Source: Miltoncostaea oceani (GTDB lineage Bacteria > Actinomycetota > Thermoleophilia > Miltoncostaeales > Miltoncostaeaceae). Taken from it: a stretch of 64,000 bases of DNA. The notes beneath the pieces were generated by a model. It did no database searches. It was not told the origin of the DNA and saw only the letters and a program-made list of their open reading frames with translations. The stretch lies in NCBI RefSeq assembly GCF_018141545.1, contig NZ_CP064356.1:1935001-1999000 (forward strand), read 5' to 3'. Of the stretch, positions 15,878 through 64,000 are shown one piece after another. Numbering within the stretch: the first letter of the stretch is position 1; each line of letters begins with the position of its first letter. Both the position numbers and the translations under genes were made by a program.

Positions 15878-16471
15878 TCAGCCGGGGTCGGCGGCGACGC
15901 GGTCGGCGTCGTTCGACAGGCGCACCATGGCGTGCAGGAGCGCCCGGTTGTCGGGCGGCCGCGCGACCCCGTCCACGTGGAGCTCGGTGGCGAGGCGGTC
16001 GGCCCAGGTCAGGAGGGTCTCGACGGGCGCCGCGCCGGCGTCCATGAGGGCCTGCTCGTAGACCAGCGCCGCCAGCGACCGCAGCTCGGCCCGCACCTCG
16101 GCGAACGGCCGGGCGGCCTTCGGCGCGGCGCGGCTCTTGCGGACCCGCCTGCGGGGACCGCGCTCGACGCGCTCGGGGGGGCCGGTGAAGCGCACGGCGA
16201 CCCAGCGCCGCTCGATCTCGACGCGCACCACGTCGCAGGGCACGTCGGCGGGTCCGCCCTCGAGGTCGATCCGCACGCGCAGCGCGGCGTCCTCGGCGAT
16301 CCACCCGATGTCGGCGACCTGCAGCAGCAGACCGCGCTCGGACGCGTTCACCGTGCGCGCCGGGCTGCGTCCGCCCGCACCGGTGATCGTCACGTCGGCG
16401 TCCATGGGCAGCCGCGGCCACTGGCGGCGCTCGTCGGCGATCGGCGTCGGCGTCGGCGTCAGGATGCTCAT
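15878..16471 (-). CDS. PilZ-domain protein (c-di-GMP binding)
   Basis: 197 residues. The N-terminal PilZ domain keeps the two ligand motifs: RRQWPRLPM (R-x3-R) near residues 15-23 and NASERGLLL near 42-50 (N/DxSxxG). The second half is helical and unassigned. PilZ domains bind cyclic di-GMP and act as effectors. First gene of a probable operon with the ASCH-like gene. A GGDEF protein and an RsiG-like motif elsewhere in the window make c-di-GMP signalling credible in this organism. Confidence 0.82.
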   Translation of the reverse strand: MSILTPTPTPIADERRQWPRLPMDADVTITGAGGRSPARTVNASERGLLLQVADIGWIAEDAALRVRIDLEGGPADVPCDVVRVEIERRWVAVRFTGPPERVERGPRRRVRKSRAAPKAARPFAEVRAELRSLAALVYEQALMDAGAAPVETLLTWADRLATELHVDGVARPPDNRALLHAMVRLSNDADRVAADPG

Positions 16472-23373: not shown

Positions 23374-24098
23374 CCGCACTCGGGTTCAGCGGGCCGGTCT
23401 ACCGGCTCACGCTCCGCTCGCTGCTCGACGGCCGGCGCGTGCTGGCCCTCGCCGGGCTCGCGCTCGTCCCGGTGTTCGCGGCCGTCGTGTTCGCGACGGC
23501 GGGCGACATCGACCCGCGCATCTTCTGGGCCCGGCTCGCGCAGCGTCTCGTCATCCCGACGGTCACGGCCTTCATCGCCGTCGTCATCGCCGCGGGGGCG
23601 ATCGGCGACGAACGGGAGGACGGCACGATCCTCTACCTCGCCTCGACGCCGCTGCCGCGCCTCGGGCTGATCGGGACGAAGGTCCTCGCCGCCTGGACCG
23701 CCTCGATGATCCTGCTCGCGCCGTCGGTGCTGGTCTCCGGGGTGATCGCCCTGGGTGACCGGGCGACGGCGGAGATGCTGGTCTGGCCGCTCGTCGGCGT
23801 CGCCCTCGCGGCGCTCGGGTACTGCGCCGCCGCGGTGCTCCTGGCCATGGTGAGCCGCCGGCCGGTGGTGCTGGGCGTGCTCTACATCCTGCTCTGGGAG
23901 GGGTCGATCGCCACGTTCGCGGCGTCCGCGGACCGGCTGTCGATCGCCGCCTACGGCCGCGCGATCGCCGTGGAGGGCGTGGTCGACGTCAACGCGCCCG
24001 ACGCGTCCGCGGCGGCGGCGGTGGTCATCCTGGTCGTCATCACGGCGGCCGCGACGTGGCTGGCCGCCCGCCGGCTCACGCGGACGGAGCTGCCGTGA
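23370..24098 (+). CDS. ABC-2 type permease (second of pair)
   Basis: 242 residues with six predicted membrane segments. The GDEREDGTILYLASTPLPR loop resembles the ABC-2 permease segment between the second and third helices. Last gene of the exporter cluster. Its 3-prime end overlaps the convergent GGDEF gene by 23 bases. Confidence 0.85.
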   Translation: MTALGFSGPVYRLTLRSLLDGRRVLALAGLALVPVFAAVVFATAGDIDPRIFWARLAQRLVIPTVTAFIAVVIAAGAIGDEREDGTILYLASTPLPRLGLIGTKVLAAWTASMILLAPSVLVSGVIALGDRATAEMLVWPLVGVALAALGYCAAAVLLAMVSRRPVVLGVLYILLWEGSIATFAASADRLSIAAYGRAIAVEGVVDVNAPDASAAAAVVILVVITAAATWLAARRLTRTELP

Positions 24099-25728
24099 CC
24101 TCCGCCACCCCGTCGCCGGCGACGCACGCGTCCCGCCCCCCCGCCTTGGCCCGGTAGAGCGCCAGGTCGGCCCGGCGCAGCAGGCCCGCCGGACCGTCGT
24201 CGGCGTGCTCGGCGACGCCCATCGAGGCCGTCACCCGCCCGACGCGCGGGAAGTCCGCCCCGCGGATGTCGCCCCGCAGGCGCTCCGCCGCCTCCAGGGC
24301 CTCCGCCACGCCGGCGCCGGGCAGCAGCCAGGCCAGCTCCTCCCCGCCGACGCGGGCGACGACGTCCTCGCGCCGCGACCGGCCGCGCAGCCGCCGCGCC
24401 ACCTCCCGCAGCACGTCGTCCCCGGCCTGGTGGCCGTGGGTGTCGTTGACGCGCTTGAAGTGGTCCAGGTCGATCAGGACCAGCCCGAGCGGGGTGCCGC
24501 CCCGGGCGGACCGCGCGGCCTCGGCGCCGAGGCGGTCGTGGAAGGTGCGGTGGTTCGCGAGGCCCGTGAGGGGGTCGGTGGTGGCGAGCGCGACCAGGCG
24601 CCGCCGGCTGTTCGCGTTGGCGACGGCGAGGGCCACGAGGTCCGCGAGGGCCCGCAGGCGCTCCTCGTCGCGGGGCCGTGGCGTCGGCGCGCCCCGGGAC
24701 CGCACGAGCCCCCACGGCCGTCCCTCCACCGCGACGGGCACGGCGAGGGCGTCGGGGACGGCGACGTCGAGGGGCACCCGGTCCCCGGCGCGGGAGGGAG
24801 CGCCGGACGCCCCGACCACGAGGCCCTCGTCGCCGTGGAACCGCACGACCTCGGCGGCCGGGGCGCCCGACAGGGCCGCCGCCTCGCGGGCGACCATCGC
24901 CGCGACGCGCTCGACGTCGGCGGCGGCCGCGACCGCGGCGGTGACGCGCGCGAGGGCCTCGCGCTCGGCGTCGTCGCGCATGCGGTCGGTGACGTCGCGG
25001 GAGTCGGTGTGCGTCTCGCGCAGTCGGCCGGTCGGGTCGCGCACCGCCCGGACGGTGGTCTCCATCCACACCCACTCGCCGGTACGGGCCCGCAGGCGGT
25101 GCGGGAAGGGGGCCGGGTCGGCGTCCCCCTCGAGCGCCTCCTCGACCCGGGCGCGCTCCTTCGGATGGCAGAGGTCGGGGAGGCGCCGCCCCTCCAGGTC
25201 GCGCGGTTCGCGGCCCAGCGACTCGCGGGACGCCGCGGACGCGAACACGACCGTCCCCCCGGCGTCGACGCGCATCAGCAGGTCGCGGCTCCCCTCGGCG
25301 AGCTCGCGGAAGGCCTCCGCCGCGGCGGAGAGGGCGCGGTGGCCCCGCGCCCGCCGCGCGAGCACGACCGCCCGGGCCACCACCTCGGCGGGGGCGGTCC
25401 CCTCCCGCACCGCGTCGGCGAAGCCGGCGTCGAGCGCGGAGGCGACGGTGGCGGCGGGGGCGTCCCCCGGGACCACCAGGAGCGCGGCCGCGCACCCGGG
25501 CAGCCCCACGAGGGACCGGGCGAGGCGCTCGTGGCGCGTGGACGCCCACACGACGACGTCCCAGACGTCCCTGGTGAGGTCGGCCTCGGCGGCCCACGGA
25601 TCGACCGCGCGCGCGTCCGTCCCGGCCCGTCGCAGCCGTCGCTGGAGCCGCAGGCGCCCGAGGGCGCTGTCCGACACCACGAGGGCGGTCGGCCGAGCCG
25701 TGCTCGGCTGGGGACGAGGGGTGGGCAC
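24076..25728 (-). CDS. Diguanylate cyclase with receiver-like, PAS, GAF and GGDEF domains
   Basis: About 550 residues. An N-terminal receiver-like fold (ALVVSDSALGRLRLQRRL, residues about 12-130) lacks the phospho-acceptor Asp context. It is followed by a PAS domain (about 150-265), a GAF domain (about 280-390) and a GGDEF domain at the C-terminus. The active-site loop reads GGEEL (ARVGGEELAWLL), which is competent for c-di-GMP synthesis; the substrate motif DLDHFKRVNDTHGHQAGDDVL is intact. No clear product-inhibition RxxD. GTG 25728 is the best start; others are possible. Probably cytoplasmic. Confidence 0.85.
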   Translation of the reverse strand: MPTPRPQPSTARPTALVVSDSALGRLRLQRRLRRAGTDARAVDPWAAEADLTRDVWDVVVWASTRHERLARSLVGLPGCAAALLVVPGDAPAATVASALDAGFADAVREGTAPAEVVARAVVLARRARGHRALSAAAEAFRELAEGSRDLLMRVDAGGTVVFASAASRESLGREPRDLEGRRLPDLCHPKERARVEEALEGDADPAPFPHRLRARTGEWVWMETTVRAVRDPTGRLRETHTDSRDVTDRMRDDAEREALARVTAAVAAAADVERVAAMVAREAAALSGAPAAEVVRFHGDEGLVVGASGAPSRAGDRVPLDVAVPDALAVPVAVEGRPWGLVRSRGAPTPRPRDEERLRALADLVALAVANANSRRRLVALATTDPLTGLANHRTFHDRLGAEAARSARGGTPLGLVLIDLDHFKRVNDTHGHQAGDDVLREVARRLRGRSRREDVVARVGGEELAWLLPGAGVAEALEAAERLRGDIRGADFPRVGRVTASMGVAEHADDGPAGLLRRADLALYRAKAGGRDACVAGDGVAEVTAAPSA

Positions 25729-59973: not shown

Positions 59974-60378
59974 TCACGTGCGCGGGATCTCCTGGCCGGT
60001 CTCCGGGTCGATCCGGATGCCGTCGGTGATGCCCGTCCCGGGGGGCGCCCCCATGGTGAGCCACACCGCCTCGCGGTCCGAGTGGTTCTGGATGCGGCGG
60101 GCGACGCCCTTCGCGAAGCGGAGCCACTCCCCGTCCTCGACGGTCACGACCTCACCCTCGACGTAGACCTCCTGGGGACCGCCGGCGAGCAGCTGGTAGA
60201 TCTCCTCCTGCTCGTGGTGGCGGTGGTACGCCATCTCGTTGCCGGGTTGGTACCGCCACACCCGCAGGGTCAGGCCCTGCGCGCCGAGCGCCCCCGCGAG
60301 GTCGCGTGACGCGGCACCGCCGCCGCGGCGCTCCCGCTCCTCGACGTCGCCCTCCGAGACCTTGGTCCAGTCGCCCAT
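59974..60378 (-). CDS. Cupin-domain protein
   Basis: 134 residues. Cupin motif AYHRHHEQEEIYQLLAGGPQEVYVEGE and a second motif with LRFAKGVARRIQNHS, where the usual second-motif His is displaced. The acidic start DVEERERRGGG is characteristic of a common small cupin group. ATG 60378 follows GAGGGAGGGG. Function unknown. Confidence 0.8.
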   Translation of the reverse strand: MGDWTKVSEGDVEERERRGGGAASRDLAGALGAQGLTLRVWRYQPGNEMAYHRHHEQEEIYQLLAGGPQEVYVEGEVVTVEDGEWLRFAKGVARRIQNHSDREAVWLTMGAPPGTGITDGIRIDPETGQEIPRT

Positions 60379-60407
60379 CAGCACCCCTCCCTCGATTGGT
60401 CCCGATG

Positions 60408-61130
60408 CTACCGGTCGTCCCCCGCGGGACGCGGCGCCGGCGGCATCCGTCCGGCGAGCAGGCGCGCGAGCTCGGCGAGGTCGGCCTCGCTCAGGATCGC
60501 GTCGGTGCGCGGCGAGGAGAGGCGGCGGGCGACCTCGCGGCGCATCGCGTCGATGTGGGCGTGCAGGCGGCGCCGGCGCGCCGACACGCGGCGCTCGTCC
60601 TCGGCCAGCAGGTTCAGCTCGTCCTTGAGGACGGCGTCCGGGAGCGCCGCGATCTCCTCGTCGCCGGGCACGGGCGGCTCCGGGGGGTCGTCGACCGCGT
60701 CGCCGAGGGCGAGCATCCGCGGCGGGACCCGGCGGTGGCGGGTGTGGCCGCCCGTCCACAGCTCGGCCCAGACGAGGAAGCCGTCGCCGTCGTGCGCGTA
60801 CCCCCAGCGGTCGGCGAGCTGCTCGACGAGGAAGAGCCCGCGGCCCCCGACCTGGCGGAGGGTCGGCGTGCCCGGGTCGGGGTCGAAGCCGGGTCCCCGG
60901 TCGCGGACCTCGATGCGCACCGCCCCCGGCACCGCCGTCACGTCGAGGCCGACGGGTTCGGTGGACCCCGAGTGCCGCATCGCGTTCGTCACGAGCTCGA
61001 CCGCGATCAGCGCGAGGTCGCCGCGGCCCTCGTCCCCCAGCTCCGGCGCCTCCAGCCCCGCGACCGCCCCGTGCACGCCGGGCAGCGACGCGGGTCGCGC
61101 GGGCAGCTCGAGGTGGACGCGCGCGGCCAT
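60408..61130 (-). CDS. RsbW-like anti-sigma ATPase fused to RsiG-type c-di-GMP motif
   Basis: 240 residues. The N-terminal 125 residues are a GHKL ATPase of the RsbW/SpoIIAB type (ELVTNAMRH with Glu45/Asn49; DRGPGF; GGRGLFLVEQLADRWG). The C-terminal helical part has ELNLLAEDERRVSARRRRL and HAHIDAMRREV. This fits the RsiG c-di-GMP motif E-x3-S-x2-R-x3-Q-x3-D as Glu179, Ser183, Arg186, His190 (in place of Gln), Asp194. RsiG is an anti-sigma factor armed by c-di-GMP; deep-branching members have one motif copy and dimerise. The fusion suggests a sigma-factor switch answering to c-di-GMP. No sigma gene is adjacent. Follows pyc by three bases. Confidence 0.75.
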   Translation of the reverse strand: MAARVHLELPARPASLPGVHGAVAGLEAPELGDEGRGDLALIAVELVTNAMRHSGSTEPVGLDVTAVPGAVRIEVRDRGPGFDPDPGTPTLRQVGGRGLFLVEQLADRWGYAHDGDGFLVWAELWTGGHTRHRRVPPRMLALGDAVDDPPEPPVPGDEEIAALPDAVLKDELNLLAEDERRVSARRRRLHAHIDAMRREVARRLSSPRTDAILSEADLAELARLLAGRMPPAPRPAGDDR

Positions 61131-61133
61131 CGG

Positions 61134-64000
61134 CTACCCCCCGTCCCCTCCGGCGCCGTCGCCGTCGTCGTCCCCGTCGCCCCCGGGGTCGGCGGGGTCG
61201 CCGACCACGACCATCAGCTGCTTGGTGTCGACCTGGGTGCCCGCCCCGACGAGCACCTCGAGGACGACCCCGTCGCGGTCGGCGAAGACGCCCGTCTCCA
61301 TCTTCATCGCCTCGATCGACAGGAGGCGGTCGCCGCGCTCGACCCGGTCGCCCTCGTGGGCGAGCACCGCGACCACCAGGCCCGGCATCGGCGCGGGGAC
61401 GTGGGTGGGGTCGCCCTCGTCCGCCATCCGGCGCCCCGGGCCGGTCGGGGCGACGGAGCGGTCGACGACCTTCACCTCCCGCGGCTGGCCGTTGAGCTCG
61501 AAGAAGATGGTGCGGCGGCCCTCGTCGTCGGCCTCCCCGATGGTGAGGAACCGGATGACGAGCGTCTTGCCGCGCTCGATGTCGACGAACAGCTCCTCGT
61601 CGCGCGTCATCCCGTGGAGGAACACCGGCGTCGGGAGGACGCTGACGTCGCCGTAGGTGCGCTGGTGCTCGGCGAAGTCGGTGAAGACCTTCGGGTACAT
61701 CAGGTAGCCGGCGAGCTCCTGGTCCGACACGCGCCGGCGGACGGCCTTCTCGACCTCCGCCCGGGCGGCGTCGATGTCGATCGGCTCGAGCACCTGGCCG
61801 GGCCGCACCGTCAGCGGCGGCTCCCCCTTCAGCACCTTGCGCTGCAGCGCCTCGGGGAATCCGCCGTGGGGCTGGCCGAGGTCGCCGTGGAAGAACTCGA
61901 CGACGGAGTCGGGGAACGCGATCTCGTGGTCCGGGTCGAGGACGTCGTCGGGCGTCAGGTCGTTGGTGACCATGTAGACGGCGAGGTCGCCGACCACCTT
62001 CGAGGTCGGCGTGACCTTGACGATGTCGCCGAACATGCGGTTCACGGCGGCGTAGGTGCCGGCGACCTCGCGCCACCGCGACTCGATGCCGAGGGCGCGC
62101 GCCTGCTGGCGCAGGTTCGTGTACTGGCCGCCGGGCATCTCGTGCTCGTAGACCTCGGCGGCGCCGGCCCGCATCTCGCTCTCGAAGCCGGCGTAGGCGT
62201 CGCGCACGGCCTCCCAGTAGGCGGCGGCCCGGGCGAGCGGCTCGCGCTCGAACCCGGTGTCGCGGGGACCGCCCCGGAGCGCCTCCACGATCGAGCCGAG
62301 GTTCGGCTGCGAGGTGAGGCCGCTCATGGGGTCCATCGCGACGTCGGCGGCGTCGACGCCGGCGTCGGCGGCGGCGAGGACCGACGCGGCGGAGATGCCG
62401 CTGGTGTCGTGCGTGTGGAAGTGGATGGGGATGCCGATCTCCGCCTTCAGGGCGGTGACCAGCATGCGGGCGGCCTCGGGCTTGCAGAGGCCCGCCATGT
62501 CCTTGATGCCGAGGATGTGGGCGCCGGCGTCCTCGAGCTGCCGCGCCATGCCCGTGTAGTAGGCGAGGTCGTACTTCGTGCGCGTCGGGTCGGTGAGGTC
62601 GCCGGTGTAGCAGATGCTCGCCTCGAGCAGCTTCCCGCTCTCGAGGACCGCGTCCATCGCGACGTGCATGTTCTCGACCCAGTTGAGGCTGTCGAACACG
62701 CGGAACAGGTCGACCCCGCCCTCGGCGGCCTGCTGCACGAAGAACCGGACGACGTTGTCGGGGTAGTTGGTGTAGCCGACGGCGTTCGACGACCGCAGGA
62801 GCATCTGGATGAGGATGTTCGGCACCGCGGCGCGGAGCCGTGCGAGGCGGTCCCAGGGGTCCTCGCGGAGGAACCGCATGGCGACGTCGAACGTCGCGCC
62901 ACCCCACGCCTCCAGCGACAGCAGCCCGGAGAGGTGCCGGGCGTAGTAGGGCGCCGGGCCGACGAGGTCGTGGGTGCGGAACCGCGTCGCGAGGAGGGAC
63001 TGGTGGGCGTCGCGGAACGTCGTGTCGGTGAGGAGCAGGCGGCGTTCGTCGCGCATCCACCGCGAGAACCCCTCGGGCCCGAGCTCCTCGAGGATGTCGC
63101 GGGTGCCGCGGGGCTCCTCGGGGCGGGGCGGGACGTCGGGGATGCGCGGCACCCGGAGGTGCTCCGGCCGGGCGCGCCCCGCGACCTCGGGGTTGCCGTT
63201 GACGAGGACCTCCGCGATGAACTGCAGCAGCCGGGTCGCGCGGTCGCGGCGGGGCCGGAACCGGAACAGCTCCGGTGTCTCGTCGATGAAGCGGGTGGTG
63301 TAGTCGCCGGCCCGGAACCGCGGGTGGGAGATGAGGGCCTCGAGGAACGGCAGGTTGGTGCGGACGCCGCGGATCCGGAACTCCCGCAGCGCCCGGTCCA
63401 TCCGCAGCACCGACTCCTCGTGGGTCGGCGCCCACGCCGTCACCTTCTCGAGGAGCGAGTCGTAGAACGGCGTGATGACCGCGGACGAGTAGGCGGTGCC
63501 GCCGTCGAGGCGGATGCCGAAGCCCGTCGCCTCGCGGTAGGCGCTGATGCGGCCGTAGTCGGGGATGAAGTGGTTCTCGGGGTCCTCGGTGGTGATGCGG
63601 CACTGCATCGCGCTGCCGTTGACCCGGATCCCGTCCTGCGGCGGCACCCCGCAGTCGTCCTCGCCGATGGTGGCGCCCTGCGCGAGGCGGATCTGCGCCT
63701 TCACGATGTCGATCCCCGTGACGACCTCGGTGACGGTGTGCTCGACCTGGACGCGGGGGTTGACCTCGATGAAGAAGAACTCGCCGCGTTCGGCGTCGAC
63801 GAGGAACTCGACGGTGCCGGCGCAGACGTACCGCGCCTCGGTCATGAGGCGGACCGCGGCGTCGCAGATCTCCCGGCGCAGGCGGGGGTCGAGGCGCGGC
63901 GACGGCGCGATCTCGACGACCTTCTGGTGGCGGCGCTGCACGGTGCAGTCGCGTTCGTGGAGGTGGACGACGTTGCCGTGCTCGTCGGCGAGGATCTGCA
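61134..64000 (-). CDS. pyc: Pyruvate carboxylase (partial, N-terminus beyond window)
   Basis: 955 residues visible. Biotin-carboxylase C-terminal half (FFIEVNPRVQVEHTVTEVVTGIDIVKAQI), carboxyltransferase domain (LLTDTTFRDAHQSLLATR, then HFHTHDTSGIS metal ligands), PYC_OADA, and a biotinyl domain with SIEAMKMETG. Makes oxaloacetate from pyruvate. The single-chain order is that of classical PYC. After the biotinyl domain an unusual 20-residue Gly/Asp tail follows. The first part of the biotin-carboxylase domain lies beyond 64000. Confidence 0.96.
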   Translation of the reverse strand, partial: QILADEHGNVVHLHERDCTVQRRHQKVVEIAPSPRLDPRLRREICDAAVRLMTEARYVCAGTVEFLVDAERGEFFFIEVNPRVQVEHTVTEVVTGIDIVKAQIRLAQGATIGEDDCGVPPQDGIRVNGSAMQCRITTEDPENHFIPDYGRISAYREATGFGIRLDGGTAYSSAVITPFYDSLLEKVTAWAPTHEESVLRMDRALREFRIRGVRTNLPFLEALISHPRFRAGDYTTRFIDETPELFRFRPRRDRATRLLQFIAEVLVNGNPEVAGRARPEHLRVPRIPDVPPRPEEPRGTRDILEELGPEGFSRWMRDERRLLLTDTTFRDAHQSLLATRFRTHDLVGPAPYYARHLSGLLSLEAWGGATFDVAMRFLREDPWDRLARLRAAVPNILIQMLLRSSNAVGYTNYPDNVVRFFVQQAAEGGVDLFRVFDSLNWVENMHVAMDAVLESGKLLEASICYTGDLTDPTRTKYDLAYYTGMARQLEDAGAHILGIKDMAGLCKPEAARMLVTALKAEIGIPIHFHTHDTSGISAASVLAAADAGVDAADVAMDPMSGLTSQPNLGSIVEALRGGPRDTGFEREPLARAAAYWEAVRDAYAGFESEMRAGAAEVYEHEMPGGQYTNLRQQARALGIESRWREVAGTYAAVNRMFGDIVKVTPTSKVVGDLAVYMVTNDLTPDDVLDPDHEIAFPDSVVEFFHGDLGQPHGGFPEALQRKVLKGEPPLTVRPGQVLEPIDIDAARAEVEKAVRRRVSDQELAGYLMYPKVFTDFAEHQRTYGDVSVLPTPVFLHGMTRDEELFVDIERGKTLVIRFLTIGEADDEGRRTIFFELNGQPREVKVVDRSVAPTGPGRRMADEGDPTHVPAPMPGLVVAVLAHEGDRVERGDRLLSIEAMKMETGVFADRDGVVLEVLVGAGTQVDTKQLMVVVGDPADPGGDGDDDGDGAGGDGG

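What the first reader, a model, noticed from the sequence alone, without database searches (positions are those of the whole stretch)
60408..61130. RsbW-type ATPase fused to an RsiG-like c-di-GMP motif
The C-terminal helices carry E-x3-S-x2-R-x3-H-x3-D (Glu179, Ser183, Arg186, His190, Asp194). It matches the published RsiG c-di-GMP motif E-x3-S-x2-R-x3-Q-x3-D except for Gln to His. Streptomyces RsiG has two motif copies; deep-branching actinobacterial RsiG is known to have one and to dimerise. Here one copy is joined to a GHKL anti-sigma kinase fold. I do not recall this combination being described. It would merge two anti-sigma logics, partner-switch kinase and c-di-GMP arming, in one protein.
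Basis: partly seen in the sequence, partly recalled or inferred. Interest (0 to 1): 0.82.

Follow-up and report, generated by a model that had tools for sequence, protein, structure and literature searches.

The report
Kinase-fold protein fused to c-di-GMP sensor
An actinobacterium of the class Thermoleophilia carries a rare protein that joins an ATP-binding anti-sigma/kinase-type domain to the small RsiG coiled-coil domain known to grip the signalling molecule c-di-GMP and switch off a sigma factor; the fusion is real and apparently undescribed, but its c-di-GMP function is untested and may be lost in its few relatives.

Summary
The five motif residues lie at E179/S183/R186/H190/D194. The nearest solved relatives of the C-terminal half are the R. 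radiotolerans RsiG structures. His for Gln is not a deviation: the RsiG paper describes it, and 40 of 41 standalone RsiGs read here have His.

AlphaFold gives a GHKL fold (closest to SpoIIAB/RsbW) plus one 40-residue helix, as expected for a single-motif RsiG that pairs between two chains.

Only four of 399 genomes of the class have the fusion. The other three keep E, S, R, H and the coil core but lose the guanine-reading Asp (R/A/A) and the sigma-docking tail; their coil still evolves under strong purifying selection. The GHKL domain is not the genome's RsbW, which sits in an RsbV-sigma-RsbW locus elsewhere; no STAS or sigma gene adjoins the fusion.

Best reading: a true GHKL-RsiG fusion acting as a coil-paired regulator, probably c-di-GMP-responsive in this organism, less surely in its relatives. 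Its sigma target (WhiG the best candidate) is inferred. Related RsiG modules are fused to Clp_N and to an acyl-CoA-synthetase-like enzyme in other Thermoleophilia.

The parts
60408..61130 (-). GHKL-RsiG fusion gene, 240 aa, ATG start
60768..61106 (-). HATPase_c_2 (GHKL) domain, residues 9-121, with N box E45-x3-N49, G1 DRGPGF (77-82) and G2 GGRG (95-98)
   Evidence: PF13581 3e-17, 64.7 bits in genome scan; fold nearest SpoIIAB/RsbW
60663..60755 (-). linker, residues 126-156, low model confidence
   Evidence: pLDDT < 50 at 129-155
60510..60662 (-). RsiG domain, residues 157-207; single 40-residue helix at 165-204
   Evidence: PF22802 33 bits, cut-off 27; PDB 7lq2/7lq3/7lq4; helix in model
60549..60596 (-). 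c-di-GMP motif E179-x3-S183-x2-R186-x3-H190-x3-D194 (ERRVSARRRRLHAHID)
   Evidence: roles of the residues from PMC8325347
60447..60512 (-). C-terminal tail like the sigma-docking tail of standalone RsiG (ILSEADLAELARLLAGRMPP), residues 207-228; absent from the three homologous fusions
61134..63998 (-). pyruvate carboxylase (3' part in window), immediately upstream, likely co-transcribed
59974..60384 (-). cupin-like protein, downstream; directly follows pyc in the three congeners, which have no fusion gene at this site

Best explanation
The protein is a true fusion of an orphan-type GHKL ATPase (SpoIIAB/RsbW fold) with a complete single-motif RsiG domain. Shown: domain identity, motif, helix prediction, rarity, non-syntenic location, conservation of the coil. 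Inferred: the C-terminal helices of two chains pair antiparallel as in RsiG of Rubrobacter; the two E-S-R-H-D motifs hold a c-di-GMP dimer; the armed coil plus tail docks a sigma factor, most likely the genome's single WhiG; the tethered GHKL domain adds a second, ATP-dependent grip on the same sigma factor or an input from a STAS antagonist. High c-di-GMP would thus favour sigma capture. In the three relatives the coil still pairs but has probably lost guanine-specific c-di-GMP reading and classical RsiG docking.
For: Both domains are above Pfam cut-offs. The nearest PDB sequences of the C-terminal half are RsiG_Rr. AlphaFold: GHKL fold plus helix 165-204 and tail helices 207-212, 215-225; Foldseek top hits are SpoIIAB, RsbW and M. 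tuberculosis UsfX/SigF complexes. All five motif residues are present and all coil-core positions (Rr 48, 52, 55, 62, 69, 73, 76, 80) are compatible. His at the Gln position binds c-di-GMP in RsiG_Cw and occurs in 40 of 41 standalone RsiGs here. The genome has a WhiG with the PLVKYVAGR c-di-GMP-contact stretch conserved, a standalone RsiG and 40 GGDEF matches. In the L126/L127 pair the RsiG domain shows 0 nonsynonymous and 12 synonymous changes in 50 codons.
Against: The three other fusions replace the Asp by R, A, A and lack the tail, so c-di-GMP binding is not a conserved property of the family. The glycine-rich links of single-motif RsiGs are missing on the tail side (SSPRTDA). The gene lies next to pyruvate carboxylase, not a sigma, STAS or GGDEF gene, and its location differs between genomes. 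A canonical RsiG already exists to serve WhiG. No binding, kinase or partner data exist. Model confidence is moderate (pLDDT 68, 4-sequence alignment).
Confidence: 0.45

Rival explanations
1. The RsiG-derived coil is now only a pairing module for the GHKL domain: it dimerises the ATPase, and c-di-GMP binding is lost or vestigial; the output is ordinary GHKL regulation (of a STAS protein or sigma factor).
For: Asp lost in 3 of 4 fusions, tail lost in 3 of 4, while coil-core residues are kept in all and the coil is under strong purifying selection.
Against: E, S, R and H, the other c-di-GMP contacts, are invariant in all four, and in the window copy the Asp and the tail are intact.
Confidence: 0.35
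2. The fusion modulates the canonical RsiG-WhiG switch by heterodimerising with the genome's standalone RsiG through the shared coil, coupling it to the GHKL domain or acting as a decoy.
For: All four fusion genomes also encode a standalone RsiG, with the same coil register in the window genome.
Against: The two genes are not co-located; nothing tests heterodimerisation; motif position 5 is Glu in the genome's standalone RsiG and Asp in the fusion, so the pair would be mixed.
Confidence: 0.13
3. The C-terminal similarity is a chance charged coiled coil, not an RsiG domain.
For: The motif pattern alone is expected about once per genome; charged helices are compositionally biased.
Against: PF22802 above its curated cut-off, best PDB matches are RsiG, tail similar to standalone RsiG, zero hits in control genomes, only two hits in this genome, and the homologous fusions reach 25-30 bits on their own.
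Confidence: 0.03

Closest known systems
Single-motif RsiG of Rubrobacter radiotolerans and Conexibacter woesei (PDB 7lq2, 7lq3, 7lq4; PMC8325347)
   Same: PF22802 domain, one E-x3-S-x2-R-x3-[Q/H]-x3-D motif, ~39-residue helix with the same hydrophobic core, acidic residue at the D39 equivalent, C-terminal tail
   Different: Fused to a GHKL ATPase; no glycine-rich link before the tail; position Rr72 is His rather than Arg; c-di-GMP and WhiG binding untested; relatives lack the Asp
RsbW/SpoIIAB anti-sigma kinases (PDB 1th8, 6m36; UsfX 8jzt)
   Same: HATPase_c_2 domain with N, G1 and G2 boxes; Foldseek E about 1e-6 for the best
   Different: Very low score with the RsbW model (12.5 bits) against 72 bits for the genome's own RsbW; no neighbouring STAS or sigma gene; carries a C-terminal RsiG domain
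RsbA family (NF041045) and orphan actinobacterial HATPase_c_2 proteins
   Same: Best NCBIfam match of the ATPase domain (43 bits); its closest relatives outside the fusions are orphan HATPase_c_2 proteins of the phylum
   Different: In RsbA the ATPase matches the C-terminal third of the model, behind another region; the score is far below the cut-off of 210
Twin-motif RsiG of Streptomyces venezuelae (PMC8325347)
   Same: Same motif and c-di-GMP logic
   Different: Two motifs in one chain, monomeric, no ATPase

Membership tests
RsiG (c-di-GMP-armed anti-sigma of WhiG) | Match to the RsiG profile (PF22802) | tested here: met
   33 bits, cut-off 27; the three homologous fusions score near the cut-off: G013 30.2 and G001 27.4 over it, G002 25.5 below
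RsiG (c-di-GMP-armed anti-sigma of WhiG) | E-x3-S-x2-R-x3-[Q/H]-x3-D motif | tested here: met
   All five in the window protein; the three homologues lack the Asp
RsiG (c-di-GMP-armed anti-sigma of WhiG) | Long coil helix with conserved hydrophobic core | tested here: met
   Helix 165-204; core positions hydrophobic
RsiG (c-di-GMP-armed anti-sigma of WhiG) | N- and C-terminal extensions that dock sigma2 and sigma4 | tested here: inconclusive
   Both present by sequence similarity in the window protein; tail missing in homologues
RsiG (c-di-GMP-armed anti-sigma of WhiG) | Glycine-rich links between coil and extensions | tested here: not met
   RRLSSPRTDAILSEADL has no Gly; one Gly before the coil
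RsiG (c-di-GMP-armed anti-sigma of WhiG) | WhiG partner in the same genome | tested here: met
   G000:C1:1146148-1146825, 268 bits over cut-off; PLVKYVAGR stretch conserved
RsiG (c-di-GMP-armed anti-sigma of WhiG) | Homodimerisation and c-di-GMP binding | not testable with these tools
   No dimer or ligand modelling available
RsbW/SpoIIAB anti-sigma kinase | HATPase_c_2 fold with ATP-binding boxes | tested here: met
RsbW/SpoIIAB anti-sigma kinase | Match to RsbW/SpoIIAB equivalog models | tested here: not met
   12.5 bits vs cut-off 145; the sigma-linked RsbW of the same genome gives 72 bits, also below the cut-off
RsbW/SpoIIAB anti-sigma kinase | Encoded with a STAS antagonist and a sigma factor | tested here: not met
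   Neighbours are pyc and a cupin gene; the RsbV-sigma-RsbW locus is at C1:822-825 kb
RsbW/SpoIIAB anti-sigma kinase | Kinase activity on STAS protein, sigma binding | not testable with these tools
   Needs biochemistry

The most novel reading that the evidence does not exclude
The RsiG coil is a portable c-di-GMP-responsive pairing module that evolution has wired to several outputs in Thermoleophilia: a GHKL anti-sigma/kinase domain (this window), a Clp N-terminal substrate-recognition domain, an acyl-CoA-synthetase-like enzyme and a flagellar operon. The window protein would then be an anti-sigma factor that reads ATP/partner-switch input and c-di-GMP in one chain.
Probability: 0.3. Interest if true: 0.82.

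Novelty: new variant of a known kind. Interest (0 to 1): 0.57.

Why it matters
RsiG is described only as a stand-alone anti-sigma factor of WhiG. A fusion to a GHKL ATPase, with the intact motif in one organism and a decayed one in relatives, gives a natural series for asking which residues are needed for c-di-GMP, for pairing and for sigma docking. If binding is confirmed it would be, as far as I found, the first protein that joins partner-switch-type ATPase control and c-di-GMP control of a sigma factor, and it would suggest that the RsiG coil is a movable c-di-GMP sensor.

Tried and rejected
Chance motif: rejected on profile, PDB and tail evidence, although the bare pattern is expected about once per genome. 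Operon logic from neighbours: rejected; in three congeners pyc is followed directly by the cupin gene, and the fusions of G001, G002 and G013 sit elsewhere. A tie to the standalone GHKL gene near the G013 fusion: not seen in the others. GHKL domain as the genome's RsbW: rejected. A tree of RsiG domains could not place the fusion domains (long branches, few columns); a single origin of the fusion is not excluded, and the shared linker start (W-x-G...TRH) favours it. More fusions in other classes: none among 396 genomes of the phylum at E <= 1e-20, and none beyond the three relatives in a GTDB-wide pattern scan, which depends on two short peptides and can miss diverged ones. Plasmid search: one ATPase-only hit.

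Full report
What is there. The minus-strand ORF 60408-61130 encodes 240 residues and starts 3 bp after the pyruvate carboxylase stop codon, so it is probably translated from the same message. hmmscan gives PF13581 HATPase_c_2 at 9-121 (3e-17) and PF22802 RsiG at 157-207 (5e-8, 33 bits, cut-off 27). phmmer against the PDB ranks the three R. radiotolerans RsiG entries first (about 5e-4); a profile of the four fusions gives the same three at 4e-5 and then RsbW. The five motif residues are at 179, 183, 186, 190 and 194.

Is it more than chance. The bare five-residue pattern would be expected about 0.9 times in a genome of this size, but 0.00015 times in this protein, and it occurs once in the 65 genes called in the window. 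The domain-level evidence does not rest on the pattern: PF22802 finds two places in the whole genome (a standalone RsiG at C1:1662595 and this one) and nothing in 14 control genomes.

The His. Schumacher et al. (PMC8325347) report that the Gln of motif 1 is often His, that His can make the same stacking contact, and that RsiG_Cw with His binds c-di-GMP with Kd 25 uM against 12 uM for RsiG_Rr. In the 41 standalone RsiG proteins I could read from Thermoleophilia genomes, 40 have His at that place, and the fifth position is Asp in 31 and Glu in 9. The window protein therefore has a typical motif for its class.

Structure. AlphaFold2 from the four-sequence alignment (mean pLDDT 68) gives the GHKL fold, a low-confidence linker at 129-155, one helix at 165-204 and two short tail helices. 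RsiG_Rr has its coil at residues 45-83 and pairs antiparallel between two chains (PMC8325347), so no hairpin is expected within one chain. Foldseek matches the ATPase part to SpoIIAB, RsbW and UsfX. The Asp-less homologue also shows a single C-terminal helix (159-196), at low confidence. The coil-core positions Rr 48, 52, 55, 62, 69, 73, 76 and 80 are hydrophobic in all fusions.

Relatives. Full-length matches occur in 4 of 399 genomes of the class: the window genome, two congeners (G001, G002) and one other genus of the family (G013). None was seen in other classes among 396 genomes of the phylum. A GTDB-wide pattern scan returned the same three relatives, named as Thermoleophilia or Actinobacteria MAGs. 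These three keep E, S, R and H but carry R, A and A in place of the Asp, and stop shortly after the coil. The Asp reads the Watson-Crick face of the outer guanines and the Arg reads the central ones (PMC8325347), so guanine-specific binding is doubtful in the relatives. Yet between the two congeners the RsiG domain has 0 nonsynonymous and 12 synonymous differences in 50 codons; under neutrality the chance of that is about (40.5/150)^12, near 1e-7 (my arithmetic). The coil does something that is selected.

Place in the genome. In G001, G002 and G003 the order is dapB, pyc, cupin, with nothing between pyc and cupin; in the window genome the fusion gene sits exactly there. The other fusions lie in unrelated surroundings. 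The gene has therefore moved, and its neighbours do not tell its function.

Which ATPase. The genome has a textbook partner-switch locus (STAS 117 aa, SigB-like sigma 231 aa, RsbW 138 aa) at C1:822-825 kb. That RsbW scores 72 bits with the RsbW model; the fusion scores 12.5 bits with it and 43 bits with RsbA. The fusion's ATPase is thus an orphan type common in the phylum, with intact N, G1 and G2 boxes.

Likely partners. The genome encodes one sigma factor over the FliA/WhiG cut-off, with the PLVKYVAGR stretch that contains the c-di-GMP-contacting K, G and R of WhiG_Sv (residue roles). It has 40 GGDEF matches; one PAS-GGDEF gene and one PilZ gene lie in this window. c-di-GMP is therefore very likely a live signal in this cell. 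In genus g10 of the same family both RsiG and a sigma over the WhiG cut-off are absent in every genome sampled, which fits RsiG and WhiG being lost together.

Mechanism and confidence. I commit to a coil-paired GHKL-RsiG regulator that, in this organism, probably binds c-di-GMP and docks a sigma factor, most likely WhiG (0.45). Shown: fusion, motif, predicted helix, rarity, conservation of the coil. Inferred: pairing, ligand, sigma target, role of ATP. The main rival is that the coil only pairs the ATPase (0.35). RsiG docks sigma2 and sigma4, whereas SpoIIAB is known mainly to hold region 3 in the middle of its sigma factor (my own knowledge), so a double grip is conceivable but untested.

Wider view. 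While looking for other fusions I found the RsiG domain with an intact motif behind two Clp_N repeats (L177:2512-3213), a paralogue of it (L178), two RsiG-like copies behind an acyl-CoA-synthetase-like enzyme (L148:3557-5803) and a twin-motif RsiG inside a flagellar operon (L149:3066-3494). The Clp_N fusion was seen in one genome only; in 398 genomes the next matches covered the Clp_N part alone, as ClpC would. This raises the chance that the coil is a movable module. Literature searches found no mention of such fusions, but the library holds open-licence papers only.

Noticed in passing
L177:2512-3213 (+) and L178:3163-3975 (-), genome G100: Two proteins with two Clp_N repeats followed by an RsiG domain; the first keeps the whole E-S-R-H-D motif, suggesting a c-di-GMP-linked Clp adaptor. 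Not found in other genomes of the class sample.
   Followed up: partly
L148:3557-5803 (-), genome G038: Acyl-CoA-synthetase-like enzyme (ACAS_N, AMP-binding) with two RsiG-like motif copies at its C terminus.
   Followed up: partly
L149:3066-3494 (+), genome G038: Twin-motif RsiG-like protein encoded inside a flagellar operon, right after a FliM-like gene; a candidate c-di-GMP control of the flagellar sigma factor or switch. Also shows that twin-motif RsiG-like proteins occur in Thermoleophilia (see also L147, L181).
   Followed up: no
L001, L145, L146: Standalone RsiG sits in a conserved cluster pgsA-rsiG-FHA protein-MerR regulator (followed by an apt-like gene in L145 and L146) in this family.
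   Followed up: no
genomes of genus g10: All sampled genomes of this genus lack both RsiG and any sigma over the WhiG cut-off, consistent with joint loss.
   Followed up: no
window 24076-25680 (-) and 15878-16471 (-): PAS-GGDEF diguanylate cyclase candidate and a PilZ protein in the same window; 40 GGDEF matches in the genome.
   Followed up: no
window 60384-61134: Clean insertion of the fusion gene between pyc and the cupin gene relative to three congeners.
   Followed up: yes
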